From positions 25,463,063-25,527,062 of the forward strand of contig OZ017795.1 in the NCBI GenBank assembly GCA_963969395.1: DNA of 64,000 nt. Direction: 5' to 3'. Below, one piece after another: positions 1,988 through 49,609 of this stretch (the first letter of the stretch is position 1; every line of letters starts with the position of its first letter). A program made the translations under genes and the position numbers. The notes below the pieces were generated by a model, which made no database searches, was not told where the DNA came from, and saw only the letters and a program-made list of their open reading frames with translations. Origin of the DNA: Pseudoscleropodium purum (taxonomy: Eukaryota > Streptophyta > Bryopsida > Hypnales > Brachytheciaceae).

Positions 1988-2015
1988 AAGGCCATATTCG
2001 TTAATTTGAGACAAA
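1988..2015 (+). repeat. Left terminal inverted repeat, 28 bp
   Basis: The 28 bases starting AAGGCCATATTCG are the exact reverse complement of 36294-36321. Beyond base 28 the two ends diverge, although both keep GAGAC-type motifs. Confidence 0.9.
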
Positions 2016-2251
2016 GTGAGGTCTCATTTTCATACAACTTGAAAATGTAGTAGAAAAAGCTCTACTTAAATTGAGACATTAGGGGAATATTGAGACTTTC
2101 AAATATCAATTTCCATGTGTAATCATTTACTTATTGTTTTGGAAAGTGGCAAGTGCTTATTGAACATTTAAATTTTGCAAAATTTTATTATGAATATAGA
2201 AATACTGCAATTAATAAGACAATAAAGTGAGACAATCCATTAAATTGAGAC
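2006..2251 (+). repeat. Left subterminal TTGAGAC repeats
   Basis: TTGAGAC occurs at 2006-2012, 2071-2077, 2090-2096 and 2245-2251, with a GTGAGAC variant at 2227-2233 and an inverted GGTCTC near 2020. The right end has GTCTCAA at 36186-36192, 36278-36284 and 36297-36303, so orientation is mirrored. Clustered short subterminal motifs are typical transposase-binding sites in plant DNA transposons. That role is inferred here. Confidence 0.7.
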
Positions 2252-2569
2252 TTGCATGTGTTTAGATTTAGGGTCTAAAGACTCTTTATTCCATATTGTA
2301 ATAAAAAGAAACATAATTATTTCTATCCCTTATGATTGTGCAATACATTTGCAAAGAATTCAAAAACATCATAATAAGAAAAATGACTTCATTGATAGAA
2401 ATCAGTAGTCATCCGGCGCTAGATTGCTTTTGTATCATAACAAACTTAATACATTCATATATCCATGTGTAGAGCTCAAAATATACAAAAACTAAAAATA
2501 ATATTTGCAACTATATAAACAACACTTCACTTATTTAAGTACGAATTCTTCATCCGTGGATTGAAGATT
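2252..2569. other. AT-rich left end without a gene
   Basis: This stretch lies between the subterminal repeats and the 3' end of the transposase-like gene on the minus strand. I see no ORF, RNA or clear repeat. Confidence 0.5.
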
Positions 2570-5330
2570 CTAACTAGTCTCTTCTTCAACCATAAAAGCT
2601 GCCAATGATGCTTTGATGATCTCAATTTGCTTTTTCGAAATTGATGCTCGCGGGTTTGTTGTTCCGTTTCTAAAACTAGGCTTCCATGCTGTCATAATAC
2701 AATCTGTATTCGACCATGTTGGAGATATTATTATGTCTTCATGCCATTGAATCCCTCCATTTGTGTCCCACCCACCATAAGTCTCCATGTCAATGTTTCG
2801 ATCCGAAGCTGGTGTCCAATACTGAATTTGGATTTGTTTTATGTGCGATGGATTTGGATTCGGCTTTGTAATCGCCCTTGCAAGCCAAAATGGCTTTGGG
2901 TCACCATCTGCAGGGCGCACTACAACAAATGAACCTGCATGCATATCACGTACAATACGAAATGAAGGTGGAGGACGATCACGCCTACGTCCAACAAAAG
3001 GGCGATCCTCTGCTTCTTCTTCATTCATTGTGCCATCTCTTTGCCTTCGGTCAACGTCGTCATGAGTGACTCTAGAAGTAGGCCAAAAAGCATCTAATAG
3101 CCTCTCGCACTTGTAGAGGTGCATCAAATGCAGCTCTAACACCCACCCAATACTTCTTGATGGGATCGTTTTTTTGTCTAAATTCTCCAGAGGCATCGTC
3201 ATTGGCCATTTGGTTCCAATAAGCAATGAAACCATTTAATCCTTTCTTTACCTCAACAAAGGCTTTAATTTGCTCCAGTTTTAGAGGTAGTGGACTACCA
3301 TTGGGTACGTTAGGACGCCCATCTTCAGTCTCATTCCACAACCGAATTCCTTTGCCATTTTCCGACAACCAGTCCTTGTCAGTGCAAAGGTCCTTATACT
3401 CCATTATGGGCCATCCATCAGAATTCATAGAAAACTTGAACTGTTGAGAAAAAGAATGACCTTCTAAAAAATTTCCACTTGTGCCCAAATATCCATGCAC
3501 AAATGTCTTGAAGTCCGGAACCTCCTCTATAAGATGAGGAATTACGGGGTGTGATTCACAATCCATAAATGATTTCATCAACTTCGGAAGTGTTGGGTAG
3601 TCATTCATTTTCAACTTCGTGCTCCATCGACCAAAAAGAGCATCGATGTCTTCGTGAGTATGCCCAACAATAAAGAAATTTATGTATACCTCCTTGAAAA
3701 TGCCTTTGTACACTAGCAAAGAGCAATAGGCAAAAACCCATCGGTTCTTGTTGTCTCCAAAGCAATTATCAAGCTGCAAAGTTAATATTGGTGGAAGAGG
3801 ATGAGCCAAAAGTGATTCATCAAAAGGGGGAAGTAGTGAATCCAAGCAAGCTTCTGAACCACTCAAAAGCGCCTTTGTTAACAAAGATTGCCCTTCTTCT
3901 ACTGAAAATAAATTGCGGGAAGAATTCTTTGGAGGTGTTTCTAAATCACGCAATAATTTTGCAATGGATCCAACAGTATGGTTTGAGTCTGTTGGAAATA
4001 TGTTGAGGCCATAGTGTGCATATCGGACATCACCATGACCATGTGCTATCATACCCGTCATAGCAATGGGCATCTTCATAAAAGGATCTATCGACTTGGT
4101 CTTGTGAGAGAAGTGTGGCGAAGCCGTCTTGGAGTGATCCATTTTGTCATGAATGATAGTGAGCATTTTGTCAGGGTATTTTTCAGATATATAACAATTT
4201 GCATAGTACAATTCTCTATGTGCCCTTTGGCCTACAAGGTGAATATTTAAAAGTGTAGACCACTTTTCTTGTGCAACCGAAAATGGAGTGCATGCACATC
4301 TGAGTTGCTTGTATCGATCACACAAGCCACAACGCGCAAAAGTATCTCCTCGAGCCTTTGGTGCATACTCTGGAAAAGAAGCACACCGAATGTTGCTCAA
4401 GCCACTAGATGATATTGGTTGTAAATTCAACATTGCATTGGCCTCATTGAGGATTGGCAATTGGTCACGCCAACGAAATGGTGATGGCAAAACCATTGCG
4501 GTCACTTTCTCTCCAGACTCCATTGTCCTAGTTTTATGTGGCATTTTGTCTGCATTCGACACAAGCAATGTCCGAAGCGTGGCAGTTGCTTGCAAGGTAT
4601 GTGTACGGGGTTTCTTGGACCCCGAATTCCCGTGCCCCTCTGCTTGCTTCCCAGCTCTAGCCATTTCCTTGTACCTATAGAAAGTTGCTTTTGATATACC
4701 GTGGATGGTGTACCAAGCTAGAGGACACACTTCCCTTCCTTTCAAGGTGATACAATCCTTGCCGTCATTGTCTTTGTGGATTTGCCGATGTACCTCAAGA
4801 AGACACTTCTTGCGGGCATACACTCCGTCATTCACATGAAGTTGGCACCGGATGGCTTGAATTTGTCCACATGGGAAAGGCTGTAAGCAATTTTTCACAC
4901 AACATGTTATAGTTGATACTTCAACAATAGACTACATTGTGAGGAGGGATTCCTTTTTGGGAGGAAGATTAGGCTCAAGCCTTTCACGCATGCTTTCATA
5001 CCGTCGAAGTCCTTTACGAACTCTTCTGTTCGCGGTAGACACAACTGTATTGTAAATGTACGTTTGGTCATGGTCATACAAACTGGCACCATTCAGAAAT
5101 ACTTGTTTAATGTGCCAAGATCGCATTGACCACATCCAAGAGGACGGAACTTCCTCTTCACATAAAGACTTTGCAATTTGAATGGCCACTCAATCATCAC
5201 CCAAAGGCTCTCCATTTGTATCGATGACGAGCTCGGGATCCACATTATAACAAATTGCATTTGCGACATCATCCCCAGCATTGTTTCTGATAGTGATTGG
5301 CATCGTATTCCATTTTGCTCAAAGAATTCC
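2570..5330 (-). pseudogene. DUF7869-type transposase-like protein, decayed
   Basis: The longest intact stretch is 608 residues (4898-3072). It holds IIHDKMD (residues 248-254), LQLDN (374-378) and GHTHEDID (412-419), a spaced acidic set that looks like an RNase-H/DDE catalytic core. A Cys-rich segment (CGLC, 190-193) and a further Cys cluster at the N-terminus suggest metal binding. I associate this layout with proteins labelled DUF7869 in plants and animals. The frame extends upstream through TAG (4932-4934) and TGA (5190-5192) to about 5330. It continues downstream, after a frameshift between about 3235 and 3075, to 2570. The downstream part encodes a C-terminal module (FVVVRPADGDPKPFWLA) usually joined to this core. 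Full length would be about 900 residues. It probably served as the transposase of the 34-kb element, which is inferred from position and motifs. Upstream exons are possible. Confidence 0.72.
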
Positions 5331-5674
5331 ATCACACTAAAAAACTCCTTCAGGTAGTGTAGGTACAGAAGTTGTAAACTATTCAGGTGTATGAAACGTT
5401 CTGCAAGAAAAAGTACCCAAAATATTAATTTAAATACACATCCCTTAAACAACTGATGATGCTAGAGTATTAGAAATGTATCATCAACTTGATGAAAAGT
5501 AAGAATAGATAAGATATAGATGGACTGACTCTAAAGAACTTAAAAATGTATCGTGTCAACTTTCGTCTAATGTCAAAAGTAATGTAATCTGATTTTGAAT
5601 AGTTTATTGTTGAGTCAATGATAAATACTATAAGCTTGCAGTAGGTCTAAGGTAAAAAAAGCCATTGGCACTTT
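5331..5674. other. Upstream region of the transposase-like gene
   Basis: AT-rich, between the minus-strand gene and the left inverted arm. It contains a diverged copy of the element's palindrome, centred on TTGAGTCAA (about 5602-5624). No further coding sequence can be assigned securely. Confidence 0.5.
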
Positions 5675-5765
5675 CTAAATGCTTCATAAACAGTCTTCTA
5701 ATATGATCAACTCTATATCACATCAATATACTGAGGTTCATATTCTAAATTTCTAGAATTGTTTA

Positions 5766-5788
5766 GTTATCGGTGAGTTGACGATAAC
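5766..5788. repeat. Diverged palindrome ahead of the 86-bp array
   Basis: A variant of the array palindrome with centre GGTGAGTTGAC, which lacks the intact GACTC core. It is mirrored at 28881-28903 in the right arm. Confidence 0.7.
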
Positions 5789-5846
5789 TTTGATGATAGA
5801 AAATAACATACAAAGTGATCATTTATATATTTCAGGCTAGCAATTA

Positions 5847-6375
5847 CAATTGATTATTGTGAAATGAACACACCCTCAGATTTGAATAAAAGTCATCATT
5901 GACTCAACGATAACTTTGTATATATTTCACAAAAGTTGATTATTGTGAAATGAACGCACCTTTGGATTCTACCAAAAGTTATCATTGACTCAACGATAAC
6001 TTGGCATATATTTCTCGATAGTTGATTATTGTGAAACGAATGCACCCTCGGATTTGAATAAAAGTTATCATTGACTCAACGATAACTTGGCATATATTTC
6101 ACAAAAGTTGATTATTGTGAAATGAACGCATCTTCGGATTTGAATAAAAGTTATCGTTGACTCAACGATAACTTTGCATATATTTCTTGACAATGGATTA
6201 TTGTGAAATGAACGCACCTTTGGATTCTACCAAAAGTTATCGTTGACTCAATGATAACTTTGGATATAGTTCACAACAGTTGATTATTGTGAAATGAATG
6301 CACCTTTGAATTCTACTAAAAGTTATCGTTGACTCAATGATAACTTTGCATATTTTTCACGACAGTTGATTATAA
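5847..6375 (+). repeat. 86-bp tandem array with a 23-bp palindrome (left arm)
   Basis: Six units of 85-87 bp. Each carries GTTATCGTTGA, then C, then the mirror half TCAACGATAAC, or a one- or two-base variant. Palindromes begin at 5892, 5978, 6065, 6150, 6236 and 6322. The linker contains TTGATTATTGTGAAATGAA followed by a GCACC block. The centre TTGACTCAA holds GACTC (a GANTC site) and TGACTCA (a bZIP/GCN4-like core). Function is unknown. A protein-binding array is the simplest reading. Confidence 0.93.
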
Positions 6376-6419
6376 CTAATACAAAGCAGTATACCTCGCG
6401 ATTATAACATTCAAAAACA

Positions 6420-7400
6420 CAATGCACTTCCAGATGGACCTAACATGGGTTCTTTTCACACAAATTTTGCTTCAACAACATCTACATGGGGCTACATGAC
6501 CAAAGACTCTTTTCCGGTTGAGAAAATATGAGGAAGCGTATTTTGCAATTGGAACAATACAATGGACACCGCACTTCCTAACATGAATTCCTTTCATACT
6601 GATTTTGTTGGAGCGACATCCATATGGGGTTGCATGATCGAAGACTACAATGTGATCTACAAAAAATACGAAGTGTACTTCGCGCTTACAACAATGCAAA
6701 ATACACCACGCTTCCTCATGGACCCAACATAAAATCTGAATACTAATTTCTTAAGAGGAATATCTACAAGGGGTTGCATGACCAAAAACTACAATATTCT
6801 CCGCACAATAATTGAAAAGGGAATTTTGCAATTGCAACAACGCAAAAGACACTACGTTCTTCATACACTAAAAATGAATTCTTCCTATATCAATTTCATA
6901 AGAGCAGCATCTACATGGAGTTGCATGACAAAGGACTAAAATTTCCTCCGTAGAAAATATGAAGCGTACTCCAATTACAACAATGTAAAATACACTGCGC
7001 TCTCATGGACTCATCATAAATTCCATTCATACCAATTTCTTAAGAGCAACATCTACATGGAGTTGCATGACCGAAGACTACAATTTTCTCCAAACAATAA
7101 TTGGAAGCATACTTCGCGATTACAACAATACAAAGACACCACCTTTCCTCATACACCCAACATGAATTCAAGACATACCAACTTCAAAATAGCAACATGT
7201 ATATAGGGTTGCATGACCAAAGATTGCATTTCTCTCGGCGGAAATGAGAAAAGCAATTGTGACACTTGTGATTACAACATTGAAAACCTAAATGCGTCTC
7301 CTCACAGATTCAATATGAACTACTTCCACACCAATTTCTTAAGAGCAATGGCTACATGTATGCAGATGCTTCTATGTTTCAAAACAAACAACAACGGCAA
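6420..7400 (+). repeat. About 143-bp tandem array (left arm)
   Basis: Six diverged units marked by a TGCATGACCAAAGAC-like landmark near 6493, 6631, 6775, 6922, 7064 and 7210 (spacing 138-147 bp). Each also has ACATCTACATGG-like and CATGAATTC-like blocks. It follows directly on the palindrome array. Short ORFs inside are by-products of the repeat. Confidence 0.85.
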
Positions 7401-7429
7401 CACATTGGTAATGCTACAACCTATTTGAG

Positions 7430-9250
7430 GATAATGGCACTTACTCGAAACTCATAGCAACGTCCACGCTCGCCACTGAAACTGTCAAACTTGGGCCAGA
7501 AGATGTTGGAATACAATACGCCGCAGTCCGCAAGAGTACAAGAAAGCTCAACAAAGGAAAATGAACAAGTCAGCTACAGAAAGATTGATTAATTTTGATG
7601 TGAAATTGGCACAGAAGATGGAGGTTCCGGAGAAGGTAGACAGAGCTTCTAGAGAGTAGGCGCGGAAATACTTGAGCAAAATGTTCTGGATTTTTGTATT
7701 TCCCTCAAATTCCTCAACATCATTCCACATCGGCGTACAACTTCTCTGACATCACTTAACGCTTTGAGCAATATCAGCACATTCCTTGTCAGGTTTACAC
7801 CATTGGAGTGCGGCGCCTTTAGTATGGAATCAACAACAGATTTGCCAACATTATAATGTTTATTAATAGTGTATATATTTATTCACATTCTTTGGATGAT
7901 ATTTGATGAATTTATGAAGGGCTGACATACCATGAAACAATACTTCCCAACAGCTACACACTTAAAGTAGGGGGCTCAAAAATCATTCATCTAAAGAAAA
8001 CGATGCATTTTTATTATTTTCGTTATTTTTGATATTTCGTTACAATATAACAAAATAACAAAATAACAATATGACAAAATTAAAAAATTAAAAAAACAAG
8101 TATTACTCAAATAAATACTAAAAATAAAAAAAAATTTAATTTTAAACTTAAAATTTTAAATTCAAAATTTTAAAATTTATAATTAACAATATAATAAAAT
8201 AACAATGTAAAAAAATAACAATATAACAATATAATAATCATACTACTAAAATCATAACTCCCATTGTAATATTGCAAATGCTACCATTAATACTAAGGAC
8301 TACTGCTTGTTATGCTACGCATTCATTGTATCACATTGGTAAAATTATGATACATTTCAATAGAATGCATGATAATGATTTCAATAAGTCTTTAAAATAA
8401 TTATTTTAAATTTTTGATAAAAGTACTTTCAATTATGCATACGTAGATATCATATTTTTTCACAATGTGATATTTCAGAAATACAGTAGCAATTTGCATC
8501 ACCTTTGTAATATCACTTATTACAAAGAGTGATATTATAGAAATAATATAGTTGTTGCAATTAAGGTGATATTAAAGAAGATTTGTAGGGTGATATTATA
8601 GAGGTAGCAATTCCATTGCTTCTCTTGGCTTACATTTCTATGATTTTGTGCTTTTGTGAGTTTTGAGCTTTCATGATTTCCATTTTCAATTGCTATTATC
8701 AAATGATTTTGAGAAATTTATTCAATTCAAGCAATTTTGAATTTCACAACAATTAAGCTATTTACAAAGTTTTTGATATTTATAAGTTTTTCTTTTCAAT
8801 TCTTCAATTTGAGGTGCCATTCTTTGTAAAAAATTGAGTCAAATTTCTAATGCATTATAATATACATGTATCCCTCATAGTATTCACTATTGCATATATT
8901 TCATTCATCATTCCATAAATTCCTATTGTACATTTCAATATATGCTTACTTGTATAGGAAATTATACAAAGATTTTTGTAAATTTTAATTAAAGATTTAT
9001 TGAATTTTTTTCGCATTTCAGGTGGAAAGTGAATATGCTCAGCGAGACGTAGTCGGAATTGAAACAGAGTGTTTTTTTCTTTGGAAAATGACGGTGCTTT
9101 CATGAAAACACAGAGAGAACAAACAATTAGGCTGGCTCACTCAGCAAACTAATTAAATGAACCGGTAACTAAATTAATAAAATGAAATATGGTGTTAAGG
9201 CAGGTACCCCAAAAATCGCCACTTTTATGAATTGTGTCTAGTTATTATTG
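7430..9250. other. AT-rich part of the left arm
   Basis: No coding sequence is supported. The 8000-8260 stretch is almost pure A/T with short iterated ATAACAA-like motifs, and 8450-8600 has several GTGATATT-type repeats. Everything here is duplicated in inverse orientation at 25419-27239. Confidence 0.6.
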
Positions 9251-9480
9251 TTAGACTAGTCAAATTTTCATATTTTCCTATTGGCAAGTGAAAGGAAGTT
9301 CTAGTGTACTAAAAAACATGACACTTGGATACCATATGCATAAGTTATGGAGGGTCAAAGTTCTTTTTGGTAGATGTTCTCAAATCATTTATTCAACATA
9401 TGTACATATTGATTTGGGATATGTACACAAAGAGATGGTGATGGTTTTAAGTAGGGTGCAATTTTGGGTGTACTCACCTT
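9250..9480 (+). repeat. Arm segment related to 51285-51520
   Basis: This part of the arm resembles a single-copy region downstream of the U6 gene. Both share, in order, CATATTTTC, TTGGCAAGTGA, GGATACCATATG, GGGTCAAGG-like and CATATTGATTT blocks. It looks like a diverged dispersed repeat or captured DNA. Its function is unknown. Confidence 0.6.
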
Positions 9481-9681
9481 AGTTCTTTATATTGATGAAG
9501 TGTCCGGAATTTCCCAATCCTTAGAAGAAAATCCTCTCTACAACCCACAATCACCAACATGGGTAAGTAACTCCACAATAGTTTGTCAAGGACTTGGGAT
9601 TATAAATTCATTTTCAAGCTAATTATGTAATTATAAAGAGTGAATTATTATTGTTAGTAATTTTTTGAAAAGAAATAGGCT

Positions 9682-11152
9682 GATATAATATAAAATTAAT
9701 ATATAAGAGTGATTCCTTTGATACAAAAATTAGAGGTTGAATTTTTCAAGGATACACACACACAAGCTCACTTTTCCATTGTACAATTTGATGCAAGGTA
9801 AATGAAACTGTGACAAGCAAAACAGCCAATGTAGAAACCCAAGAAATGACACAACATAGTGGCTTATATCAACTCTTGACAAAAAATGTGCAATAATAGA
9901 GATTTGAGCTAATTAGTTAGGATTAGTGGCCACAATCAATGTCTTGATTGATGGTGAAGGAATAATTAGTAACTATAGAAGGAACTTCCATTTTTTTAGT
10001 ATAAATTTGTGACAAGAAAGGAACTTTTTTATTCCTTCATATCATGGTCATGTTAGAGAATATTGTGACTATTGTAGGTGGTGAGATGACCATTATACAT
10101 ACACTTTGGGGGGGGTTGGGGGATCGTCTAAGGATTGTTTTGGGCTAATTGGGCAACAAACTTCAAAAAAATTATAACAAATTCATACTTTGTAAAAGAA
10201 AAATTTTTTTTTTCTCCATTTTCCACATATGTCTTTATATAGAATTTTTTTTTTTAAATTCAATAATGTCAACAAAGGAAACCAATCATTCTGCATGTTA
10301 TAGGTTGATGTATCTATTCATGAACCCTTAGATGTTGAGGGAATAATTAACATATTTGCATTGCTTCTAAGAGTCATTTGATAATAAGAAAATCTCATGT
10401 TAAGCTTACTTTAGGGTTAAGTTGTAGGAGGCAACCCATCCCTAACTAACACCTCATTCTAGCAATGTAAGCTATTTTCTTTTTGTGTAGAACACAAAAG
10501 TGATGACTAATTATGGCACATTTCCCAATGCAATTGTGGCTCATTATAATTGGCTAACAAGACTATCAATATTGCAAACACCCTTGGTGAATTTTGCAAC
10601 CAGCCCTTAGTTGGAAAGAGGAAGGTCTATATCACTGGCATGCAAGAAAGCCTATCTTCCACTAAAAAATTCTTAGTGATTTTGTGTTGTAGAAAAAAAA
10701 TCCAGAAAATTATGCATACCTTTTGTTGCCTATTTTTACACATGTGAAAATTTAGCCTATGAAGAAACCCGCCCTACAAGTAGCCTTTCGAGGTTGACAA
10801 CAAAGTAGGTCCTAGTGATGAAGCGATCCGTATCGTCCAATGAGGAACTCACGACGCAGATTAACCCTCCTCAATAAATTCCAGGGATGGAAAGTTATAA
10901 CTTAATCTATAACTTAGAAGCACTTGCAAGTACAGTCATTCAACTGACAACGCAACAAGGTATTGACAACAACAGATGCTACAATCAGAATGCGGAAAGC
11001 ACAAACCCAGAAACAGGGACAAATTTCTTAAGTTATAACAAGGAATGGTGAACTTCATTAATTAAATTGGCACGATTCCAGCTCCAAAAATTGTGACAAA
11101 TATGCACATAACGGTCAAAAATCTAGGACTGGTAGGCATTAACGATTACGAA
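9682..11152. other. Left part of the loop, no supported gene
   Basis: Unique AT-rich DNA just inside the left arm. Short ORFs at 10149-10331 and 10550-10747 show no recognisable domain. I see nothing else. Confidence 0.45.
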
Positions 11153-11503
11153 CTAAAGTGTTGGAATATCAAAATTGATGTTCAGGATCTCCCATTGTGC
11201 CCAAATTTTTTTCTCTCTTAAAATTCGCAATTGTAATCCCCCAATGAGACTCCAGATCGAACCCTCCCGTCCTTCGCAAACAACTTGAAGAAGATTGCCA
11301 TCGGGCTCAGCATTATAGATCAAACATGGAGGAGCTAGAAATTCACTGCCGCAATTAAACATGTGCGTTATTGTCCTCAGAATATGGTTGAAATCGGCCG
11401 GTTTGAACACCTGAATCGATCTTTGAAGGTATAAAATAGTTGCCTTTGAAGCTAGGTACAACCGGCTTGGAAAATAATAAGCTCGACGTAATTGCATTGT
11501 CAT
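11153..11503 (-). CDS. Hypothetical fragment in the loop of the giant element
   Basis: An open frame of 116 codons without a recognised domain. Downstream of its start (on the plus strand, 11520-11570) is a stretch similar to 9495-9560 in the arm (GGAACTCCGCAATCC against GGAATTTCCCAATCC). It may be part of a cargo gene whose other piece is 24304-24975, now separated by the 11.9-kb insertion. Both lie on the minus strand, but I cannot connect them by splice sites. Confidence 0.3.
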   Translation of the reverse strand: MTMQLRRAYYFPSRLYLASKATILYLQRSIQVFKPADFNHILRTITHMFNCGSEFLAPPCLIYNAEPDGNLLQVVCEGREGSIWSLIGGLQLRILREKKIWAQWEILNINFDIPTL

Positions 11504-12209
11504 TCGCTTTTTACATTGACTAAATGTCTGGAACTCCGCAATCCTTGGTGGAAAACTTTATCTCCACTCCCACTGAAAATAGAGTTTAGAGACCGTTGCA
11601 AGTGAATTCAAAGGCTTCCTTCACAATCTTGATGACTTAAAGCATCTACAAATTGCATAATGAGTGCACTGTCATCACATCAGAACCCACCCCCAACCAT
11701 AACGATAGGATACGAGTGTAGCAAGGGAACTGCAGGCAATCAAGTGTTCAAATCTCCCTCAAACATCAACACCTTTTTGTTACTCATTGAATTTAGGGTT
11801 GGAGAAAATCAACATTCCAGCACATTACATTACAAGCAAGGGGAACTACATCGCTCGAAGGATAGGACATCAGTTCCAATCAATCGAACTGCTTGAGAAG
11901 TAATCTAACCTAAGCATGTTCTATATGGAACACGAAACTTGTATTTGATAATAAACACACACCAACAATAATTACACACCAAAGAAAGTAGAATCTACAG
12001 ATTTGAATATACATAGATTCAATTAAGAACACAAAGTCTGCACATACTCCGCAAAGCCTGCATTTAATCCTGAAAAAGTTTACATCTTCCATAATAGCCA
12101 TCCAAATGGATTCTTCATAAAACTAATCTCCCAGTTGACCTTGTATTGACTACCTAGCCTCAACAACAAGTTTAATGTCGCCTAATCAATACTAAACAAG
12201 AATGTGCAT
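11504..12209. other. Loop DNA up to the nested insertion
   Basis: Short frames only. It ends at the 8-bp target site of the nested element. Apart from the segment similar to the arm (11520-11570) I see no feature. Confidence 0.45.
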
Positions 12210-12217
12210 CTTGTTCC
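12210..12217. repeat. Left 8-bp target-site duplication (CTTGTTCC)
   Basis: CTTGTTCC precedes the left terminus and is repeated without change at 24094-24101. A perfect 8-bp duplication is the signature of hAT and some other superfamilies (KDZ, P, Merlin-like). Confidence 0.92.
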
Positions 12218-12405
12218 CAGGGTTGACGAATCTCAACGTCCGCCCCAAAATAGCGTCCGTTTTCCGGATGTCCGGACGCACGGACACTAGCGGACGCAAC
12301 GTCCCTCCCGCCGTCAGAGGGCGGATGCGCGGGGCTGGGCGGACGGCCGGGGCGGTCGAGCGTACAGAGCAGATGGGGCGGACGGGGCGGACTTCGCATT
12401 GCCAT
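12218..12405 (+). repeat. Left terminus and subterminal CGGACG array
   Basis: The terminal CAGGGTTGAC is followed by GCCCCAAAATAG, GTCCGTTTTCCGGA and then dense CGGACG/CGTCCG repeats on both strands. The same block order opens the 242-bp MITE at 12602. Open frames over it are products of base composition. Confidence 0.85.
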
Positions 12406-12601
12406 TAGTCATTAGAAAATTTTATATTGTTATGTAATTTGAATGTTACACAATCAAAAATGAATGCATCCACGTAAAATAAGATGTACATATAAAAATA
12501 TTTTTATACGCAAATGAAAATATAGCATCTTTATATATAAATATATATGTATAAATAAAATACATGAAAACATAGTTCCAATATCACTATTGAATCCTAT
12601 A
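12406..12601. other. Short AT-rich spacer between terminus and MITE
   Basis: AT-rich with ATATAAAT-type runs. It contains no gene and ends in the MITE target site. Confidence 0.5.
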
Positions 12602-12843
12602 CAGGGTTGACGAATTTCAACGTCTGCCCCAAAATAGTGTCCGTTTTCCGGACGTCCGGACGCAGCGTCCCGACCGCCGTCGGAAAGCGGACGGGCAAGG
12701 CGGACGGACGGGGTGGACGGCCTGACCGCCCAGATCGTGCGGATCAGATCAGTCCGCGCGTTGATCGGACGGCCGTAATCGGGCGGACGGACAGGCGGAC
12801 GCTGCGAACACAGCGTCCACGTCCGGACGTCCTGTCAACCCTG
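12602..12843. mobile_element. 242-bp GC-rich MITE nested in the 11.9-kb element
   Basis: It starts CAGGGTTGAC and ends GTCAACCCTG, a perfect 10-bp inverted repeat. Flanking octamers are ATCCTATA (12594-12601) and ATTCTATA (12844-12851), a TSD with one change. Its interior is the same CCCCAAAATAG plus GTCCGTTTTCCGGA block and CGGACG array as the end of the host element. It is therefore very likely a deletion derivative moved by the same machinery. Confidence 0.9.
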
Positions 12844-12944
12844 ATTCTATACGATCTTTTTAAGATCTAAATCTTTCACATTCTTTTTTGTTTTTAAACA
12901 ATGAAAGGACCATTGTTTTTAAAAAACAAAATTCTCTTCAAATC

Positions 12945-16800: not shown

Positions 16801-16809
16801 GCCCAGTTG

Positions 16810-19130: not shown

Positions 19131-19194
19131 TAAACATCTCTACCGTGAGATTTTGAAAAAGGAACAATTTCCTTCATTAGGTTTAGGGTTTAAG

Positions 19195-24093: not shown

Positions 24094-24101
24094 CTTGTTC
24101 C
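24094..24101. repeat. Right 8-bp target-site duplication (CTTGTTCC)
   Basis: Identical to 12210-12217 and directly abutting the right terminus. Confidence 0.92.
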
Positions 24102-24303
24102 CTTCCATGAATCTGATTCGGTGATGAAGGAATTGAAATAAAAACAGATATATATGAGGAAATACTAATAAGCATTGGTCCAAAGAGCAACATCGATCAG
24201 CTTTTTCAAGTACTTTCAATTCCATCAATATGAAGCATTACATCTTCTGTTCAACATGGCCTTCTGCTAAGCCCAATGACAATGAGGATGGAATAAGAAC
24301 ATA

Positions 24304-24975
24304 CTATCGCACTGCAATGTTTTCTCCATCACCTTGGAGGAGCACAAGGTCTTCGTTGAGGTAGTCAAGAGTAGAAGCTGCATGAAAATACAACCATTCC
24401 CGTCTCCAATCGAAATTTTCAAGGATAGGCATTTCAGAGCCAATTATTTTCTTCAATCGCATTGTCAAGTGCTTTGCCGTTGATATATCCAAATTCTTGA
24501 AAGTTTCACTTCTTATCAAACTCGACTTAAATAAATGATGACTTACGAAATCTTCATATGTCAGTGTACAGTTGCCCCAAAGATCCTGTAATTTCCTACT
24601 AAACTTCACCTGATGAACAAAGATAGTCTCATTTTCATATTGTGTAACAAAGGCAGTACACCTAGTGTAAAACGTGTAAGGGAATGTACCTTGAAGCTCT
24701 TCATCTTCTAGTGTAATCCTATTATTAAACCCTACTCTTCTAAAAGCTAAGAAGCATTCTCTAGTGATGAAGAAATTGGTACTATTAATAGGAATTGATT
24801 TGGACAGGTAATTGAGTTCATCAGAAGTTAAACCCACTCCAACACTTTTCAACCATCCAAACGATCGATACGTTTCTCCTCGAAGTATCGGCTTGAACGT
24901 ATTCAAAACCAACAAGGCCATCTTGGAGTGCAAAGATTGCCACCAATCCATGACCATGAATATGATATTTGGCAA
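24304..24975 (-). CDS. Hypothetical cargo ORF beside the right arm (223 aa)
   Basis: An open frame with soluble, mixed composition, rich in aromatic residues. No domain is recognised. The frame starts 13 bp inside the right arm boundary, so its upstream sequence lies in the duplicated arm. The nested 11.9-kb element separates it from another minus-strand frame at 11153-11503. It could be a captured host gene fragment or an element gene. Because it is open while neighbours are broken, it may be worth checking for expression. Confidence 0.4.
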   Translation of the reverse strand: MPNIIFMVMDWWQSLHSKMALLVLNTFKPILRGETYRSFGWLKSVGVGLTSDELNYLSKSIPINSTNFFITRECFLAFRRVGFNNRITLEDEELQGTFPYTFYTRCTAFVTQYENETIFVHQVKFSRKLQDLWGNCTLTYEDFVSHHLFKSSLIRSETFKNLDISTAKHLTMRLKKIIGSEMPILENFDWRREWLYFHAASTLDYLNEDLVLLQGDGENIAVR

Positions 24976-27268
24976 GGTGAGGCCTAAAGCCTATTTCTTT
25001 TCAAAAAATTACTAACAATAATAATTCACTCTTTATAATTACATAATTAGCTTGAAAATGAATTTATAATCCCAAGTCCTTGACAAACTATTGTGGAGTT
25101 ACTTACCCATGTTGGTGATTGTGGGTTGTAGAGAGGATTTTCTTCTAAGGATTGGGAAATTCCGGACACTTCATCAATATAAAGAACTAAGGTGAGTACA
25201 CCCAAAATTGCACCCTACTTAAAACCATCACCATCTCTTTGTGTACATATCCCAAATCAATATGTACATATGTTGAATAAATGATTTGAGAACATCTACC
25301 AAAAAGAACTTTGACCCTCCATAACTTATGCATATGGTATCCAAGTGTCATGTTTTTTAGTACACTAGAACTTCCTTTCACTTGCCAATAGGAAAATATG
25401 AAAATTTGACTAGTCTAACAATAATAACTAGACACAATTCATAAAAGTGGCGATTTTTGGGGTACCTGCCTTAACACCATATTTCATTTTATTAATTTAG
25501 TTACCGGTTCATTTAATTAGTTTGCTGAGTGAGCCAGCCTAATTGTTTGTTCTCTCTGTGTTTTCATGAAAGCACCGTCATTTTCCAAAGAAAAAAACAC
25601 TCTGTTTCAATTCCGACTACGTCTCGCTGAGCATATTCACTTTCCACCTGAAATGCGAAAAAAATTCAATAAATCTTTAATTAAAATTTACAAAAATCTT
25701 TGTATAATTTCCTATACAAGTAAGCATATATTGAAATGTACAATAGGAATTTATGGAATGATGAATGAAATATATGCAATAGTGAATACTATGAGGGATA
25801 CATGTATATTATAATGCATTAGAAATTTGACTCAATTTTTTACAAAGAATGGCACCTCAAATTGAAGAATTGAAAAGAAAAACTTATAAATATCAAAAAC
25901 TTTGTAAATAGCTTAATTGTTGTGAAATTCAAAATTGCTTGAATTGAATAAATTTCTCAAAATCATTTGATAATAGCAATTGAAAATGGAAATCATGAAA
26001 GCTCAAAACTCACAAAAGCACAAAATCATAGAAATGTAAGCCAAGAGAAGCAATGGAATTGCTACCTCTATAATATCACCCTACAAATCTTCTTTAATAT
26101 CACCTTAATTGCAACAACTATATTATTTCTATAATATCACTCTTTGTAATAAGTGATATTACAAAGGTGATGCAAATTGCTACTGTATTTCTGAAATATC
26201 ACATTGTGAAAAAATATGATATCTACGTATGCATAATTGAAAGTACTTTTATCAAAAATTTAAAATAATTATTTTAAAGACTTATTGAAATCATTATCAT
26301 GCATTCTATTGAAATGTATCATAATTTTACCAATGTGATACAATGAATGCGTAGCATAACAAGCAGTAGTCCTTAGTATTAATGGTAGCATTTGCAATAT
26401 TACAATGGGAGTTATGATTTTAGTAGTATGATTATTATATTGTTATATTGTTATTTTTTTACATTGTTATTTTATTATATTGTTAATTATAAATTTTAAA
26501 ATTTTGAATTTAAAATTTTAAGTTTAAAATTAAATTTTTTTTTATTTTTAGTATTTATTTGAGTAATACTTGTTTTTTTAATTTTTTAATTTTGTCATAT
26601 TGTTATTTTGTTATTTTGTTATATTGTAACGAAATATCAAAAATAACGAAAATAATAAAAATGCATCGTTTTCTTTAGATGAATGATTTTTGAGCCCCCT
26701 ACTTTAAGTGTGTAGCTGTTGGGAAGTATTGTTTCATGGTATGTCAGCCCTTCATAAATTCATCAAATATCATCCAAAGAATGTGAATAAATATATACAC
26801 TATTAATAAACATTATAATGTTGGCAAATCTGTTGTTGATTCCATACTAAAGGCGCCGCACTCCAATGGTGTAAACCTGACAAGGAATGTGCTGATATTG
26901 CTCAAAGCGTTAAGTGATGTCAGAGAAGTTGTACGCCGATGTGGAATGATGTTGAGGAATTTGAGGGAAATACAAAAATCCAGAACATTTTGCTCAAGTA
27001 TTTCCGCGCCTACTCTCTAGAAGCTCTGTCTACCTTCTCCGGAACCTCCATCTTCTGTGCCAATTTCACATCAAAATTAATCAATCTTTCTGTAGCTGAC
27101 TTGTTCATTTTCCTTTGTTGAGCTTTCTTGTACTCTTGCGGACTGCGGCGTATTGTATTCCAACATCTTCTGGCCCAAGTTTGACAGTTTCAGTGGCGAG
27201 CGTGGACGTTGCTATGAGTTTCGAGTAAGTGCCATTATCCTCAAATAGGTTGTAGCATTACCAATGTG

Positions 27269-28249
27269 TTGCCGTTGTTGTTTGTTTTGAAACATAGAAG
27301 CATCTGCATACATGTAGCCATTGCTCTTAAGAAATTGGTGTGGAAGTAGTTCATATTGAATCTGTGAGGAGACGCATTTAGGTTTTCAATGTTGTAATCA
27401 CAAGTGTCACAATTGCTTTTCTCATTTCCGCCGAGAGAAATGCAATCTTTGGTCATGCAACCCTATATACATGTTGCTATTTTGAAGTTGGTATGTCTTG
27501 AATTCATGTTGGGTGTATGAGGAAAGGTGGTGTCTTTGTATTGTTGTAATCGCGAAGTATGCTTCCAATTATTGTTTGGAGAAAATTGTAGTCTTCGGTC
27601 ATGCAACTCCATGTAGATGTTGCTCTTAAGAAATTGGTATGAATGGAATTTATGATGAGTCCATGAGAGCGCAGTGTATTTTACATTGTTGTAATTGGAG
27701 TACGCTTCATATTTTCTACGGAGGAAATTTTAGTCCTTTGTCATGCAACTCCATGTAGATGCTGCTCTTATGAAATTGATATAGGAAGAATTCATTTTTA
27801 GTGTATGAAGAACGTAGTGTCTTTTGCGTTGTTGCAATTGCAAAATTCCCTTTTCAATTATTGTGCGGAGAATATTGTAGTTTTTGGTCATGCAACCCCT
27901 TGTAGATATTCCTCTTAAGAAATTAGTATTCAGATTTTATGTTGGGTCCATGAGGAAGCGTGGTGTATTTTGCATTGTTGTAAGCGCGAAGTACACTTCG
28001 TATTTTTTGTAGATCACATTGTAGTCTTCGATCATGCAACCCCATATGGATGTCGCTCCAACAAAATCAGTATGAAAGGAATTCATGTTAGGAAGTGCGG
28101 TGTCCATTGTATTGTTCCAATTGCAAAATACGCTTCCTCATATTTTCTCAACCGGAAAAGAGTCTTTGGTCATGTAGCCCCATGTAGATGTTGTTGAAGC
28201 AAAATTTGTGTGAAAAGAACCCATGTTAGGTCCATCTGGAAGTGCATTG
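27269..28249 (-). repeat. About 143-bp tandem array (right arm)
   Basis: Mirror copy of 6420-7400. Confidence 0.85.
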
Positions 28250-28293
28250 TGTTTTTGAATGTTATAATCGCGAGGTATACTGCTTTGTATTAG

Positions 28294-28822
28294 TTATAAT
28301 CAACTGTCGTGAAAAATATGCAAAGTTATCATTGAGTCAACGATAACTTTTAGTAGAATTCAAAGGTGCATTCATTTCACAATAATCAACTGTTGTGAAC
28401 TATATCCAAAGTTATCATTGAGTCAACGATAACTTTTGGTAGAATCCAAAGGTGCGTTCATTTCACAATAATCCATTGTCAAGAAATATATGCAAAGTTA
28501 TCGTTGAGTCAACGATAACTTTTATTCAAATCCGAAGATGCGTTCATTTCACAATAATCAACTTTTGTGAAATATATGCCAAGTTATCGTTGAGTCAATG
28601 ATAACTTTTATTCAAATCCGAGGGTGCATTCGTTTCACAATAATCAACTATCGAGAAATATATGCCAAGTTATCGTTGAGTCAATGATAACTTTTGGTAG
28701 AATCCAAAGGTGCGTTCATTTCACAATAATCAACTTTTGTGAAATATATACAAAGTTATCGTTGAGTCAATGATGACTTTTATTCAAATCTGAGGGTGTG
28801 TTCATTTCACAATAATCAATTG
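28294..28822 (-). repeat. 86-bp palindrome array (right arm)
   Basis: Mirror copy of 5847-6375, six units each with the GTTATC-to-GATAAC palindrome. It sits 170-700 bp upstream of the ParB/methyltransferase-like gene, where it could act as a regulatory or binding array. Confidence 0.93.
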
Positions 28823-29934
28823 TAATTGCTAGCCTGAAATATATAAATGATCACTTTGTATGTTATTTTCTATCATCAAAGTTATCGTCAACTCACCGAT
28901 AACTAAACAATTCTAGAAATTTAGAATATGAACCTCAGTATATTGATGTGATATAGAGTTGATCATATTAGAAGACTGTTTATAAAGCATTTAGTGGGTC
29001 AAAGAACAACACAAGGACGGAGGCAGAAAACTGGATTTGCAACACCACGGCCGTCTGCTCCCACAACATCCGGAAGTAGAGCAAAGCCAGGGAACACAAG
29101 ATCTGAGCCAAAGAAGAGGGGTGCACCAGTAGGAGCAGAAACTAGTCGAAAGAGAAGGAAGAGTTTCATGGTTGGTACAGAAGGTGCAGCTAGTTCAGGC
29201 TCAAGTTTGACTACAAACTCTGTTGGGTTAGCAGCCTTCAAAGGTCCAATTCCAAACTTTGAGGAAATTGGCAAAATCCAAAAAGACTTTTGGAAGGAAC
29301 ATAGGCACTGCTTCCTCTTTGACATGGTTACAGTGACAGTCGACATCGAACAGTGTATTATAGCGAGCGACGAATACATCATTCGCACACTGCAACAGAA
29401 TATGGTGAATGACATGAAGCAAGTTCTTATTCAAATGGTGGAAATAGGTCAACGCCAAAAAGTGTGTCTCACTCCAGTTGATGATCGGAAAATGCTTTTG
29501 AAGGAAAAGCCAAAGAAATGGGAGGACATTAAAAATATGTGATTTATGATTATCAACGGTCAGCATAGCATTACGGCTTCAAACAACTTCAGAATGAAGC
29601 ATGCGATGAAGACTGGAAAGCCGACCTCCAAAATTGGGATGCCTTAATTGTTTGGACTCAAGATCCAAATAAACTTCGAAACATCTCAAAGTTCTACAAT
29701 CTCATCAACCACCTACATCATGCCCAACCAACTTGGGGCAACCAGTTAATTGCGTGTCGGAACATTTGGAGCATTTTGAAATGCCCAGCGATCGATAGTT
29801 TGGAGCCAAAGGTCAGAGGCAACGGCTCGGTCTACAACGAGAATAACTACAAGGGAAGGTTCAACTCCTTCAAACTTATGTAGTGAAGAACAGATTCCTT
29901 TGCTAAAAATCTGAGCCATAATGAATGTTTTGAA

Positions 29935-30197: not shown

Positions 30198-31520
30198 GAG
30201 TTTCTCGTTAGCTGTTATTCAAAGGTTCCAAAACATAAATCCTGACAAAGATGGCTCCAAGATTAACTCCACTTCGGACCTAAAGAATGAACTCCAAATC
30301 ATAATATTGCCGGAGAAGAAATGGGTGCATTGGAACGATTCCTAACCATGCACGCTGGAGGCAAATTGATTAATCCCCTCACCGACAAACCGTTCAGAGT
30401 AGAGAAAGGATTCAAGGTGAACAATCAAAATTTGAAGCGAGAGTTCTTCAGACATTTTGGGCACTTCACTGATACTGACTTCGAAGAATTCGCAAAGCAC
30501 CTCATTGGTAGAACAAATTGCGGTGTGGTGTATCCGAAGGTGTCTGTTTCCAAGACAAGGATCCCAGTAGCCGACAATCACATTGCATTCGATTGAATGG
30601 AGCGCAGAAAACGTAAGAAGGTAATCATATAGGATTTGATGGAGTTGAAGCCAAGTTTCAAATTTTGGGATAGTGTAGGTGATGTGAAAAATAAGATGTG
30701 GGCAACGTGGAAGGTGAAAAGCAGGTTCTCATCGACAATATGGGATTTCTTACTCTCGCATCCAAAATCAGAGTATTTTAGGAAGCGGTTGAGGAACGAA
30801 GCACGCCTGAAGCGAGTGACAGATTTGAAGACAGAATTCCCAGAAGTGCTCCACATGTTCAAGAGGTTTGTGCAACTAAAGTCTGAGCTTCCGGTGAATA
30901 TCGGAGGAGTGCAAATGCGGGGAGTTGACAGTGTTGGGAAGACGCTAGTAACGCACAGCAACTACTTGTATTCCCCTAAGCAGCTCAACTTGGCAGTCTT
31001 TGATGCTAGGGCTGTCGTCAGGATCACACCCACAGAGACTAAAGCTGCTATTGACCCGTTTTTGATCTTTTTGAAAGAGGAATTGGAGCCTGCCATTACA
31101 AAGCCAAACGTATGGCTCTTCATCTTAAATGACTCGGATGACATTGAAGCCGCAACAAAGTTTGCAACTACAAGTCTAAAAGACTACGATGTTGTCCACT
31201 CTACTTATGTCCCTTCAAAGGGCGAGCAACTGAACAACGTAGGTAGTAAAACGACTGCTCCAGATGTACCACTTCTCTTCCTTTTCAAGAAAGACAACGA
31301 TTTTGTTGCCTCCGTACGTCCATTGATACAAATCAAGTATGATACACCCTCTGATTGTGTATACTACAAGGAACCTGCCAAAAACACGGAGGCAAAGTAC
31401 AGAGTATATATTGGCGAACTCCGAATGGAGTTTTATTTGGAGATCTTGCAGAGCTTTGCCGACCCCCAAAAAAATGTTCTTCGAATTTTTTCAGGCATGA
31501 AGCTCATGATGGCCTCAAAG

Positions 31521-31681
31521 GTATGTACATTCTACTAATAGTTATCCTTGACTCAATGATAACTTCTTTGTTTTGTACATTGCTATTGTTGTATACTGTT
31601 ATCATCGATTTGACAATGGTCCATTGTCCAAAGCGTTTGTTGTCATTCTCATTGAGCTACATCCTTCTGCTTGTGGGTTAG
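31521..31681 (+). other. Intron of the methyltransferase-like gene (161 bp)
   Basis: Donor AAG|GTATGT and acceptor TTAG|ATG. Removing it joins FSGMKLMMASK to MFGAYFYGMVE, restoring the order expected for a beta-class methyltransferase. It contains one palindrome at 31541-31563. Confidence 0.75.
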
Positions 31682-32899: not shown

Positions 32900-33592
32900 T
32901 CCCAAGCCAATTTGGCTTCTGTGGCTGTAGCAACTGCTTCTGCATTACCTACTTCAAAGATGGGCGCGGCTTTTCCCTTGCCTTATGAAAAAGAACCAGT
33001 TGACTATGGAGAAGGCGAAAAAGTCATCTATGAAAATATGAATGTTGCTGAGGAGGAACAAGGAGATGCAAAGGCACATAATCAAACAATAGCAGGTTCT
33101 TCTCAGGTAATTGATACTCTTTTGATTGTTGATTGAATTGATTGCTTAGTTTCAGCTAAAAATGCATGGCTAATAACAAAGTAATTGAAGTTTTAAATCT
33201 TATATAAATTTTTGCTGCGTAACAAGATGGCAGCACCAATCCTTGATGGCTCGAGTGCTCGACGCTAACGGCAAACGCATCTAAGGAGAGGATGCGTGTA
33301 GCATAGTGATAGCATCAAGTGTACAACATTAGTTGACTTGTTGTCTCGAATTTATGGAATTTTAGTTATTTGTAAAGAAAGTCACAATGCGCCAACTACG
33401 TCTAATTGCACTTCAATGTCTTGTTGCTCAGCTTTCAAAACTCGTATGCGTACTGCCTCCGCTACCAATGAGAGCTTTTTCTAACGGGAGACAAGAGTTG
33501 CTTAGTGGAATTCAATTTGTGTTTCCACTCTCTGGAATTCCTACTGCATTTCAACAAGTAACTTCATTTCTCTGTTGTTTTCTTTTGGTCAG

Positions 33593-34423
33593 GTAGAATT
33601 GAAGTGCGGAAGAGAGGTCGTCCCAAAGAACGTTCCACCGGTAGTACCAGAACCCAAAAGAAAATGGTTGAACATTGTCTTGGACTTAAACGGTGTACTC
33701 TGCCACACTGCTTTGAAGTCCTATGTGGCAAAGTACAAGCCATTCAACGTCAAAGACCATGTTCTCTGCCATCGAAACCCCACTATAATTGGTCCTAAAG
33801 CCGTATTTGCCCGACAGAATGTGGGCGAATTTCTCCAACAGGTTGCTATGATGGCAAAGAGGGTGGTAGTGTGGACCACAATGATGAAGCACAATGCAGA
33901 ACCCATCGTTGCTCACCTCTTTCACGGTTGCAGACATCCTTATGACATCCTAAGTCAGGAGCATTGTACCAAAATAGAGGTTTCCGAGGGAAATTTCTTT
34001 CATCAAGGTGGCAAAGTACATTGCATGAAAGTTCTGTCAGAAGTCTTGTTCGCAAATTCTAGTGGAGACGATCCATTCACTCACAATAATACTATTTGTA
34101 TTAACGACTCTCCAAGTAAGAGCGTCTACAATGAGAATGGAAATGCCATCTTTCTAGACACCTGGAATCACGTAAAACGGAGGGATGATGTTCTTATGGG
34201 GGAGCTCCTACCATGGCTATGGCGTCTACATTTGAACTGCCAAAATGGAGAATTGCGGGATTATGTCCAAGAGAACCGGCTTGGTGTGAACCCTTTCACT
34301 GCTCGTGATCTCTCTATGAAACAAATTGTGGCAGCAATGAGAGAGTCCAGCAAAGCCTTCAATGTACGATATGAACTTCCTGGGATAGGTTTAGTCATAG
34401 GGCGTGGCCGCCGTAGGAAGTGA
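33593..34423 (+). CDS. FCP1/NIF-type (HAD) phosphatase domain exon
   Basis: An open frame of 276 codons with LDLNGVL (about 33678-33700) at the place of the DxDGT(L/V) motif, VVVWTTMMKHNAEPI (HAD motif II position), and ICINDSPSKS (about 34095-34125) at the DDSP motif, followed by a GNAIFLDTW segment. This is the layout of CTD small phosphatase (SCP/FCP1/TIM50) domains. The second Asp of DxD is Asn and the first Asp of DDSP is Asn, so activity may be lost or changed. It reads straight from an intron acceptor, so it is probably the 3' exon of the upstream gene and not a separate gene. It ends with a basic GRGRRRK tail. Confidence 0.75.
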   Translation, partial: VELKCGREVVPKNVPPVVPEPKRKWLNIVLDLNGVLCHTALKSYVAKYKPFNVKDHVLCHRNPTIIGPKAVFARQNVGEFLQQVAMMAKRVVVWTTMMKHNAEPIVAHLFHGCRHPYDILSQEHCTKIEVSEGNFFHQGGKVHCMKVLSEVLFANSSGDDPFTHNNTICINDSPSKSVYNENGNAIFLDTWNHVKRRDDVLMGELLPWLWRLHLNCQNGELRDYVQENRLGVNPFTARDLSMKQIVAAMRESSKAFNVRYELPGIGLVIGRGRRRK

Positions 34424-36293
34424 ACATCCCATGTACCCACATTTAAAATGGCAGTGGTATGTTATATTCGTGTATGAAATAATCTTTTGTAAATAATGTT
34501 TCGTAAATATTGAAAAAAAATTTCAAAGTTTAGATTTTTTATTCTATTCCTTAGATTTCTTCTTATGTGTCCAATTAGGTCAGTGCTATTAGCGATTGTT
34601 GTTGCTTGCTGGAGGATCATGTCTCAAGCATTTAAATATTCTGTACTTGCTTCAGGTTGGACTCCCGTTTGATGCAAGCCTTTCTACAAATGGGAGGCTC
34701 ACGCGGAGCCTCCTTTCCAGATCAGAAAAGTCTTTTTCAACTTGTAGCGAGTCCATGGATGGCAGTTGTGACACTGCACCTTTTTCTAAACCGTACTTGT
34801 TGTGCTCCGCCTCCGATGTAGTGTCCACAGCCATAGACTACTCAAAGGGAAACATGGAGGACAGGGTCGTCAATAGTTCCCCCAAGAGAAGGGTGGTTTA
34901 GTACTATATCTATGAGCTCAAGAAATTTAGTGAAACTTTCAAAAACTCCTATAACATAAAGAAATCCATTAGCTTTAGGGAAATTTCATTTTTATTTCAA
35001 TCGGTGTCTGAAAGCATTCATTATGCTAGCTGAATCTTAGAGGAGACCGGGCAGTCCAAAAAATTCCCAATAAAATTGAAATAAATTCTTTGATATTTTT
35101 TTCTTGTATGTCACATTTGTGTTAACTTTATATTTGAAGCTTTGGTTCATCCATTTGGAGAAGTAATGAGAAAGTTATGGACAATCTTGTTTTTGTGACA
35201 ATTTGAGCATTTTCAGGAAAAAACAACTAATAGAACTCACATTCGAATGCAATTTTGACACCCTCTTCCAAAAACATTGTTAAATAGGTTGGGTATATTT
35301 GCTACAACAATTTGACCATTGGAATTATTGTGTTTTAATTTCATCTTAGAACTATTAAGAATTTAGTTTTTATTTCAACCTTGAATCTACATCTGCTTAG
35401 TATTAATTGAATGAGTGAAAATTTAGTACTTTGTTGTTGAATTTCTATGGTCTACATTTTCAACACAGTTGTTCAACATCCCAAAATATAAAATCAAAAT
35501 GCGTCCTACAAATTTATTTAAGTTAAGAAGATTCAAACTAAGCCAAAAAAGTTTGCCAAGCAAGGTTAGGAAATACATGTTTTCTTGTCCTTTAAATGTA
35601 AATATCTTTATATCCATGTGGTGAAAGTTTTTGAAACATCATACTCCACATTTTTATACTAGTGTAGTACAAGATCCTGTAGTCAAATCTAAAAGAAAGC
35701 CAATTTTTTGCTCTTTTGCAATAGAAATAAAAACATTTTCAAGTATTTTTTGCAAGACTTTGAATACTCTCTTCCTCTTTGCAATAGAAATAAAAACATT
35801 TTCAAGTATTTTTTGCAAGACTTTGAATACTCTCTTCCTCTTTGCAATAGAAATAGCAGTTTTGAATGGTCTTTGTCTTCAAAAATACCTTGGGACTTTA
35901 TAGGTTAATAACAAGGTAGATATAATGTAAAAATCTAGTATTTTGAAAAACAAAGCAAGCAACCACTTTGTATATACACACAAACTCTAAGAAATTAGAA
36001 GTTCATTTATGAAGAAATGCTACAAGCCATTCAGAATAGAATAATATAGTCTAATATTCCAAGTAAATTGAACTTGTTGAGTGCAAACTCTTTCAATATT
36101 TTTCCTTCAATGTGAACGAAAATTTCTAATTATACGGTGTACTAATGTAATTTTCCTTCATTGGTTGCATTTGTTTGAAATCGCAGTCTCAAGGTTGCTT
36201 AGTCATTCAATACTAAACTTTATTTATCATTGAATTGAACTATATTGTCAAAAAAACGTTGCACTTGTGTTTTGAAAGTCTCAAAATGACCAT
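34424..36293. other. Right end region of the giant element, no gene
   Basis: AT-rich. Segment 34970-35450 is related to 58975-59400 (shared blocks TTTTTATTTCAAT, GACAAT(C/T)TTGTTTT, CCATTGGA). A 63-bp repeat lies at 35715-35850. Inverted subterminal motifs occur from 36186. No coding gene is supported. Confidence 0.6.
35715..35850 (+). repeat. 63-bp tandem duplication
   Basis: Two full copies and a partial third of a unit starting TTTGCAATAGAAATAAAAAC at 35715, 35778 and 35841. The unit length is a multiple of three, so it creates a false repetitive ORF. Confidence 0.95.
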
Positions 36294-36321
36294 TTTGTCT
36301 CAAATTAACGAATATGGCCTT
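36294..36321 (-). repeat. Right terminal inverted repeat, 28 bp
   Basis: Exact reverse complement of 1988-2015. It ends in AATATGGCCTT followed by ATAG. Confidence 0.9.

Positions 36322-49577: not shown

Positions 49578-49609
<32 letters not shown>

What the first reader, a model, noticed from the sequence alone, without database searches (positions are those of the whole stretch)
1988..36321. A 34-kb TIR transposon with two internal 4-kb inverted arms
Perfect 28-bp termini, a 4-bp ATAG duplication and mirrored TTGAGAC subterminal motifs delimit one element with unusual cargo. It has a DUF7869-type transposase-like gene at one end and a ParB/methyltransferase/phosphatase-like gene at the other. 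Plant DNA transposons of this size with such cargo are not something I can match to a named superfamily.
Basis: partly seen in the sequence, partly recalled or inferred. Interest (0 to 1): 0.92.

Follow-up and report, generated by a model that had tools for sequence, protein, structure and literature searches.

The report
Giant moss transposon with mirrored arms
This is a real, multi-copy giant "jumping gene" of what is most likely a moss: it carries its own cutting enzyme and a conserved partner gene, and one sub-type has two inner mirror-image arms that stay nearly identical and let its middle flip over.

Summary
The 34,334-bp block 1988-36321 is confirmed as a transposon: identical 28-bp inverted termini, 4-bp ATAG duplication, inward TGAGAC motifs. 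The host genome (a moss, judging by the nearest named proteins) holds 102 termini (<=3 mismatches); I formed 28 convergent pairs, 18.6-106.6 kb apart, 20 with exact 4-bp duplications. The DUF7869 gene lies 1.1-2.0 kb inside one end in 31 of 33 copies; its model has an integrase-like core (middling score). The right-hand gene region (ParB-like fold, NIF phosphatase) is no random cargo: the divergent pair recurs in two more families (about 68% and 52% transposase identity); four loci of the latter have exact 4-bp duplications, 4 of 4. The inner arms are derived ("type A"): right-gene matches start at the same residue in 23 loci, while 7 ("type B") keep the start; 4 of 6 type-B pairs hold a TET/JBP-like oxygenase. 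Arms are 98.9-99.98% identical within an element, 95-97% between; the middle is flipped in three of five; two C43 copies look recombined through their arms. 11.9 kb of the window copy is a nested second transposon. The superfamily seems undescribed; kinship to Academ is untested.

The parts
1984..1987 (.). left copy of the 4-bp target site duplication ATAG
36322..36325 (.). right copy of the 4-bp target site duplication ATAG
1988..2015 (+). left (L) terminal inverted repeat, 28 bp, followed by L-specific GTGAGGTCTCAT
36294..36321 (-). right (R) terminal inverted repeat, 28 bp, with R-specific ATGGTCATTTTGAGAC
2006..2251 (+). L subterminal TGAGAC motifs (2007, 2072, 2091, 2228, 2246 +; 2021 -)
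36186..36303 (-). R subterminal TGAGAC motifs (36186, 36278, 36297)
2585..5414 (-). DUF7869 transposase gene (tblastn extent of relative P0004); frame interrupted in this copy
   Evidence: element coordinates plus 1987
5675..9681 (+). inner inverted arm 1
5846..6373 (+). 86-bp repeats (6.1 copies) inside arm 1; one unit with the perfect palindrome AAAGTTATCGTTGACTCAACGATAACTTT, others near-perfect
9682..12218 (.). middle region, left part (type-A specific; inverted in E01, E04, E06 relative to this copy)
12219..24093 (.). nested second DNA transposon, 11.9 kb, 9-bp duplication CTTGTTCCC (12210-12218 and 24094-24102); not part of the outer element proper
24094..24987 (.). middle region, right part
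24988..28994 (-). inner inverted arm 2
28296..28823 (-). 86-bp repeats, arm 2 copy
28988..29853 (+). right-hand gene, ParB-like part, truncated at its 5' side by the arm (match starts at residue 181 of the type-B sequence)
30291..31538 (+). right-hand gene region, second conserved part (ORFs 30291-30596, 30633-31538); no Pfam match for 30633-31538
33506..34423 (+). NIF/FCP-like phosphatase part

Best explanation
A DDE-type DNA transposon family of a moss, 18.6 to 106.6 kb between termini, apparently part of an undescribed superfamily. The left gene encodes the transposase (DUF7869), which binds the 28-bp terminus and inward TGAGAC/dyad subterminal sites and inserts with a 4-bp staggered cut. 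A divergently transcribed right-hand gene region, ParB-like domain plus NIF-type phosphatase, is the conserved second component (inferred: helps assemble the end complex on repeated palindromes and/or keeps the element expressed). The original layout is type B, which often also carries a TET/JBP-like oxygenase (inferred: acts against the 5-methylcytosine that visibly mutates these copies). The window copy is type A: one aberrant repair event copied part of the left arm, inverted, into the right gene; that derivative then outnumbered the full form. Its arms are kept nearly identical by gene conversion; crossing over between them flips the middle and, between two elements, probably inverts the chromosome segment. 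Shown: anatomy, duplications, copy number, gene-to-terminus linkage, conservation over families, arm identity, flipped middles, crosswise duplications. Inferred: catalysis, roles of ParB-like, phosphatase and oxygenase parts, conversion, order of events.
Confidence: 0.88

Rival explanations
1. It is a member of an already named Repbase superfamily, most likely Academ (AcademX lineage), unrecognised because the moss copies are large and Pfam calls the transposase a DUF.
For: AcademX makes 3- or 4-bp duplications (passage of PMC10045372). DDE-like core.
Against: No XPG nuclease or helicase Pfam match among the ORFs scanned; a conserved ParB-like and phosphatase part is not recalled for Academ. 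No Academ protein could be compared.
Confidence: 0.25
2. It is an endogenous large DNA virus or virus-transposon fusion (Teratorn- or Polinton-like) with terminal repeats and a viral integrase.
For: Large size, inverted internal repeats around a unique segment found in both orientations, TET/JBP-like gene in type B.
Against: No polymerase, capsid or packaging match among the ORFs scanned (not all ORFs were scanned); 4-bp duplication, while Polintons make 6 bp (PMC10045372).
Confidence: 0.04
3. The inner arms plus middle (5675-28994) are a separate fold-back transposon that inserted into an ancestral element.
For: The arms bound a unit whose middle type B lacks.
Against: Arm 1 is largely native: both type-B elements carry about 3.3 kb of it in place; only the right arm is a new junction, which cuts the right gene at the same residue in 23 loci with a 3-bp CTA overlap (by eye).
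Confidence: 0.05
4. The R-R and L-L copies and flipped middles are assembly errors caused by the long inverted arms.
For: 4-kb arms are hard for assemblers; C41:2320047 R-R has mirrored flanks.
Against: Re-inverting the stretch between the C43 pair restores two perfect duplications, ATTA and ATAC, which fits a true inversion but also a mis-oriented 49-kb segment; middles are flipped in 3 of 5 elements on three contigs.
Confidence: 0.2

Closest known systems
TET+ fungal DNA transposons (Kyakuja, Dileera, Zisupton and others; PMC12730594)
   Same: DNA transposon that carries a TET/JBP-type oxygenase (here type B only, profile match below cut-off)
   Different: Moss, not fungi; transposase is DUF7869; 4-bp duplication (Zisupton 8 bp per the paper); conserved ParB-like/phosphatase partner; 18.6-106.6 kb
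Academ (AcademX)
   Same: 3-4 bp duplication (PMC10045372)
   Different: No XPG nuclease match found in the ORFs scanned; transposase kinship untested
CACTA/EnSpm and hAT plant transposons (recalled)
   Same: Short TIRs and subterminal motif arrays
   Different: 3-bp and 8-bp duplications (recalled); no Pfam relation found for the transposase
Teratorn, Polintons, Starships (giant eukaryotic transposons; PMC6431247 outline and search listings only)
   Same: Giant size, accessory genes
   Different: Other integration enzymes (recalled); Polintons make 6-bp duplications; no viral hallmark found in the ORFs scanned
Herpesvirus or plastid inverted repeats and human Y palindromes (recalled)
   Same: Inverted arms kept near-identical, inner segment found in both orientations
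   Different: Here inside a dispersed transposon, in one sub-type

Membership tests
DDE/D TIR transposon | terminal inverted repeats at many loci | tested here: met
   102 termini; 28 convergent pairs formed from the 72 with up to 2 mismatches
DDE/D TIR transposon | fixed-length target duplication | tested here: met
   20 of 28 exact 4 bp; third family 4 of 4
DDE/D TIR transposon | transposase with RNase-H core and three acidic residues | tested here: inconclusive
DDE/D TIR transposon | empty sites closing on one duplication | tested here: inconclusive
   gapless closure in paralogous repeat units for C45:11455806; with gaps for E01; none for the window copy
Academ (AcademX) | 3-4 bp duplication | tested here: met
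   4 bp; definition from PMC10045372
Academ (AcademX) | nuclease gene (XPG, recalled) | tested here: inconclusive
   no match among ORFs scanned; multi-exon genes and short ORFs not all scanned
Academ (AcademX) | homologous transposase | not testable with these tools
   no Academ sequences at hand
Zisupton (KDZ) | 8-bp duplication | tested here: not met
   4 bp here; 8 bp per PMC12730594
Polinton/Maverick | 6-bp duplication | tested here: not met
   4 bp here; 6 bp per PMC10045372
ParB/Srx fold | ParB-type fold | tested here: inconclusive
ParB/Srx fold | CTP binding and parS-like site | not tested
   palindromic repeats present, no link shown
TET/JBP oxygenase (type B only) | Tet_JBP profile | tested here: inconclusive
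   25.3 bits against cut-off 34.9 on one exon, E 9.7e-6; 11.9 bits on the next
NIF/FCP phosphatase | PF03031 above cut-off | tested here: met
   54.4 and 68.7 bits against 21.8

The most novel reading that the evidence does not exclude
A new superfamily of giant plant DNA transposons whose conserved core is a DUF7869 DDE transposase plus a ParB-like/phosphatase partner acting on iterated palindromes, i.e. a partition-style clamp recruited to transposition; one lineage adds a TET/JBP oxygenase against methylation, and its inverted-arm derivative turns same-orientation copies into inversion substrates that reshape moss chromosomes.
Probability: 0.4. Interest if true: 0.92.

Novelty: new variant of a known kind. 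Interest (0 to 1): 0.82.

Why it matters
It gives DUF7869, a protein family abundant in mosses without a known role, a likely function as transposase; it would add a plant case of the transposon/TET arms race described in fungi; it links a ParB-like fold to eukaryotic transposition; and it offers a natural system to measure gene conversion and inversion between inverted arms in plants.

Tried and rejected
Methyltransferase reading of the right gene: no Pfam match in the parts scanned. TET/JBP in the window copy: none among the close matches; only in type B. Cargo reading of ORFs 12945-23581: rejected, they lie in the nested element. Fold-back insertion for the arms: rejected. PDB sequence search for transposase and right gene: no match better than E 0.1. 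Foldseek alone on the transposase: nothing below E 0.5; integrase rows appear only on VIA realignment. Virus: no hallmark match among scanned ORFs. Papers (ten searches; of the hits only the listed 6-20 titles were seen): DUF7869 occurs in 0 held papers; no listed title describes this element; the Academ paper is not held. Diverged-terminus pattern searches did not complete, so copy numbers of the second and third family termini are unknown.

Full report
OBSERVATION. The window copy is bounded by 28 identical bases in inverted orientation (1988-2015, 36294-36321) and a 4-bp ATAG duplication. The inner arms are 4007 bp with 99.975% identity. TGAGAC is concentrated at the ends: six in the first 400 bp (five pointing inward) and three in the last 400 (all inward), against about 0.1 per 400 bp elsewhere; the six other complete copies show 5-6 and 3.

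FAMILY IN THE GENOME. The terminus occurs 50 times forward and 52 reverse with up to 3 mismatches, 59 exact, control zero (100 places listed). From the 72 listed with up to 2 mismatches I formed 28 convergent pairs, 18.6 to 106.6 kb apart; 16 termini stayed single, and those with 3 mismatches (diverged relatives, among them a C49 pair 29.7 kb apart) were left out. Six complete copies besides the window were fetched (E01-E06), and the ends of the other pairs. Exact 4-bp duplications: 7 of 7 complete copies, 12 of 19 further pairs, 1 of 2 more, in all 20 of 28; the chance of one match is about 0.5% under assumed base composition. Termini come as an L type (GTGAGG, transposase side) and an R type (ATGGTC); one single one, C49:8149330, deviates.

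THE EIGHT EXCEPTIONS. C43:9649503-9685053 is R-R with ATTA/GTAT and C43:9734258-9753440 is L-L with TAAT/ATAC; re-inverting the stretch between their middles gives two ordinary elements of the same orientation with ATTA and ATAC duplications. Same-orientation copies can invert DNA only through inverted shared sequence, and the inner arms are such sequence (inference). C44:16188334 is L-L (ATAT/TCAA), C41:2320047-2339075 is R-R with mirrored flanks, C44:13361720 differs by one base (TAAT/CAAT), and C45:18268410, C48:19353972 and C48:20459255 are unexplained.

TYPE A AND TYPE B. Type B (complete copies E02, E05) lacks the second arm and has another middle with a TET/JBP-like gene (25.3 bits, below Pfam's 34.9). 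Six close loci of this gene exist, four inside the 28 pairs (E02, E05, the 66-kb and the 106.6-kb pair); the second exon has no stop in 6 of 6 and the third in 5 of 6, while all six rows of the first show a stop, in E05 apparently at the joined edge of my query. The right gene starts at residue 1 in 7 loci (6 of them in the 28 pairs) and at 47 in one, and at residue 180 or 181 in 23 loci, so the arm junction probably arose once; left arm and right gene overlap there by CTA (by eye). Both type-B copies keep about 3.3 kb of arm 1 in place, so the left arm is native and the right arm the copy. Five complete type-A copies (W, E01, E03, E04, E06) have arms 98.9-99.98% identical within and 95-97% between elements. 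A middle probe is forward in W and E03, inverted in E01, E04, E06, absent in E02, E05. L-L copies have arms of 99.95% (4000 bp) and 100% (2035 bp) identity although left arms of the seven complete copies are 97.3-98.25% identical: conversion between arms, or a fold-back or recent-copy origin.

SILENCING. In six left arms (E02 left out for its deletion), 146 of 185 private substitutions are C>T or G>A, hitting 46 of 188 CG, 39 of 160 CHG and 61 of 1120 CHH sites: the mark expected of plant 5-methylcytosine. That makes an anti-methylation role for the TET/JBP-like gene plausible but untested. PMC12730594 (abstract, passages, sections 4 and 26 read) describes such transposons from fungi.

NESTED ELEMENT AND EMPTY SITES. 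12219-24093 is a second transposon with duplication CTTGTTCCC; E01, E03 and E04 hold the exact empty site. For C45:11455806 the joined flanks align without gap across the junction to tandem-repeat units of the window at 53.3-54.1 kb (84% over 184 bp): a paralogous empty site. E01's flanks align across the junction only with gaps. The window copy's own empty site was not found.

HOW IT WORKS. Most likely cut-and-paste by DUF7869 at termini and subterminal dyads with a 4-bp stagger. The ParB-like/phosphatase region is a conserved partner; its task is inferred. 86-bp repeats upstream of the transposase hold a near-perfect 29-bp palindrome in all seven copies (1 to 9 matching units within the 1.5 kb looked at); in the window element they hold all four long palindromes found, shuffles none. 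They are a candidate binding site. Type A spread although it lost the TET gene and the front of the partner gene, so it was probably helped in trans.

NOVELTY. It works like a DDE TIR transposon and meets most tests of one. Superfamily membership is open: 4-bp duplications speak against Zisupton and Polinton and fit AcademX (PMC10045372, passages read), whose proteins could not be compared. DUF7869 is in none of the 5.39 million held papers; the titles listed by the other searches describe nothing matching, which does not exclude print elsewhere.

Noticed in passing
window 12219-24093: Nested 11.9-kb transposon with 9-bp duplication, termini AGGGTTGAC..GTCAACCTTG, CGTCCG-rich ends, and RING-like, coiled-coil and kinase-like ORFs (weak Pfam matches, below cut-off); present elsewhere too, since the left flank of C48:20459255 matches 13138-13257 at 98%. 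Its superfamily is unknown.
   Followed up: partly
L030, L031 (C41:2320047-2339075): R-R element with mirrored 12-bp flanks and equal-scoring right-gene copies: a palindrome that extends beyond the element, or an assembly error.
   Followed up: partly
window 5846-6373 and 28296-28823: 86-bp repeats (1 to 9 matching units per element) carrying a near-perfect 29-bp palindrome in all seven complete copies.
   Followed up: partly
G000: About thirty more distant TET/JBP-like places (24-58% identity) in this genome, outside the six close ones.
   Followed up: no
window 49558-49660: U6 spliceosomal RNA gene next to an 87-bp tandem array (49829-50181).
   Followed up: no
window 43662-46720: LRR-bearing ORFs, one with a weak F-box match, right of the element.
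   Followed up: no
window 53424-53977: 55/110-bp tandem repeat, a relative of which is the target site of another copy of the transposon (C45:11455806).
   Followed up: yes
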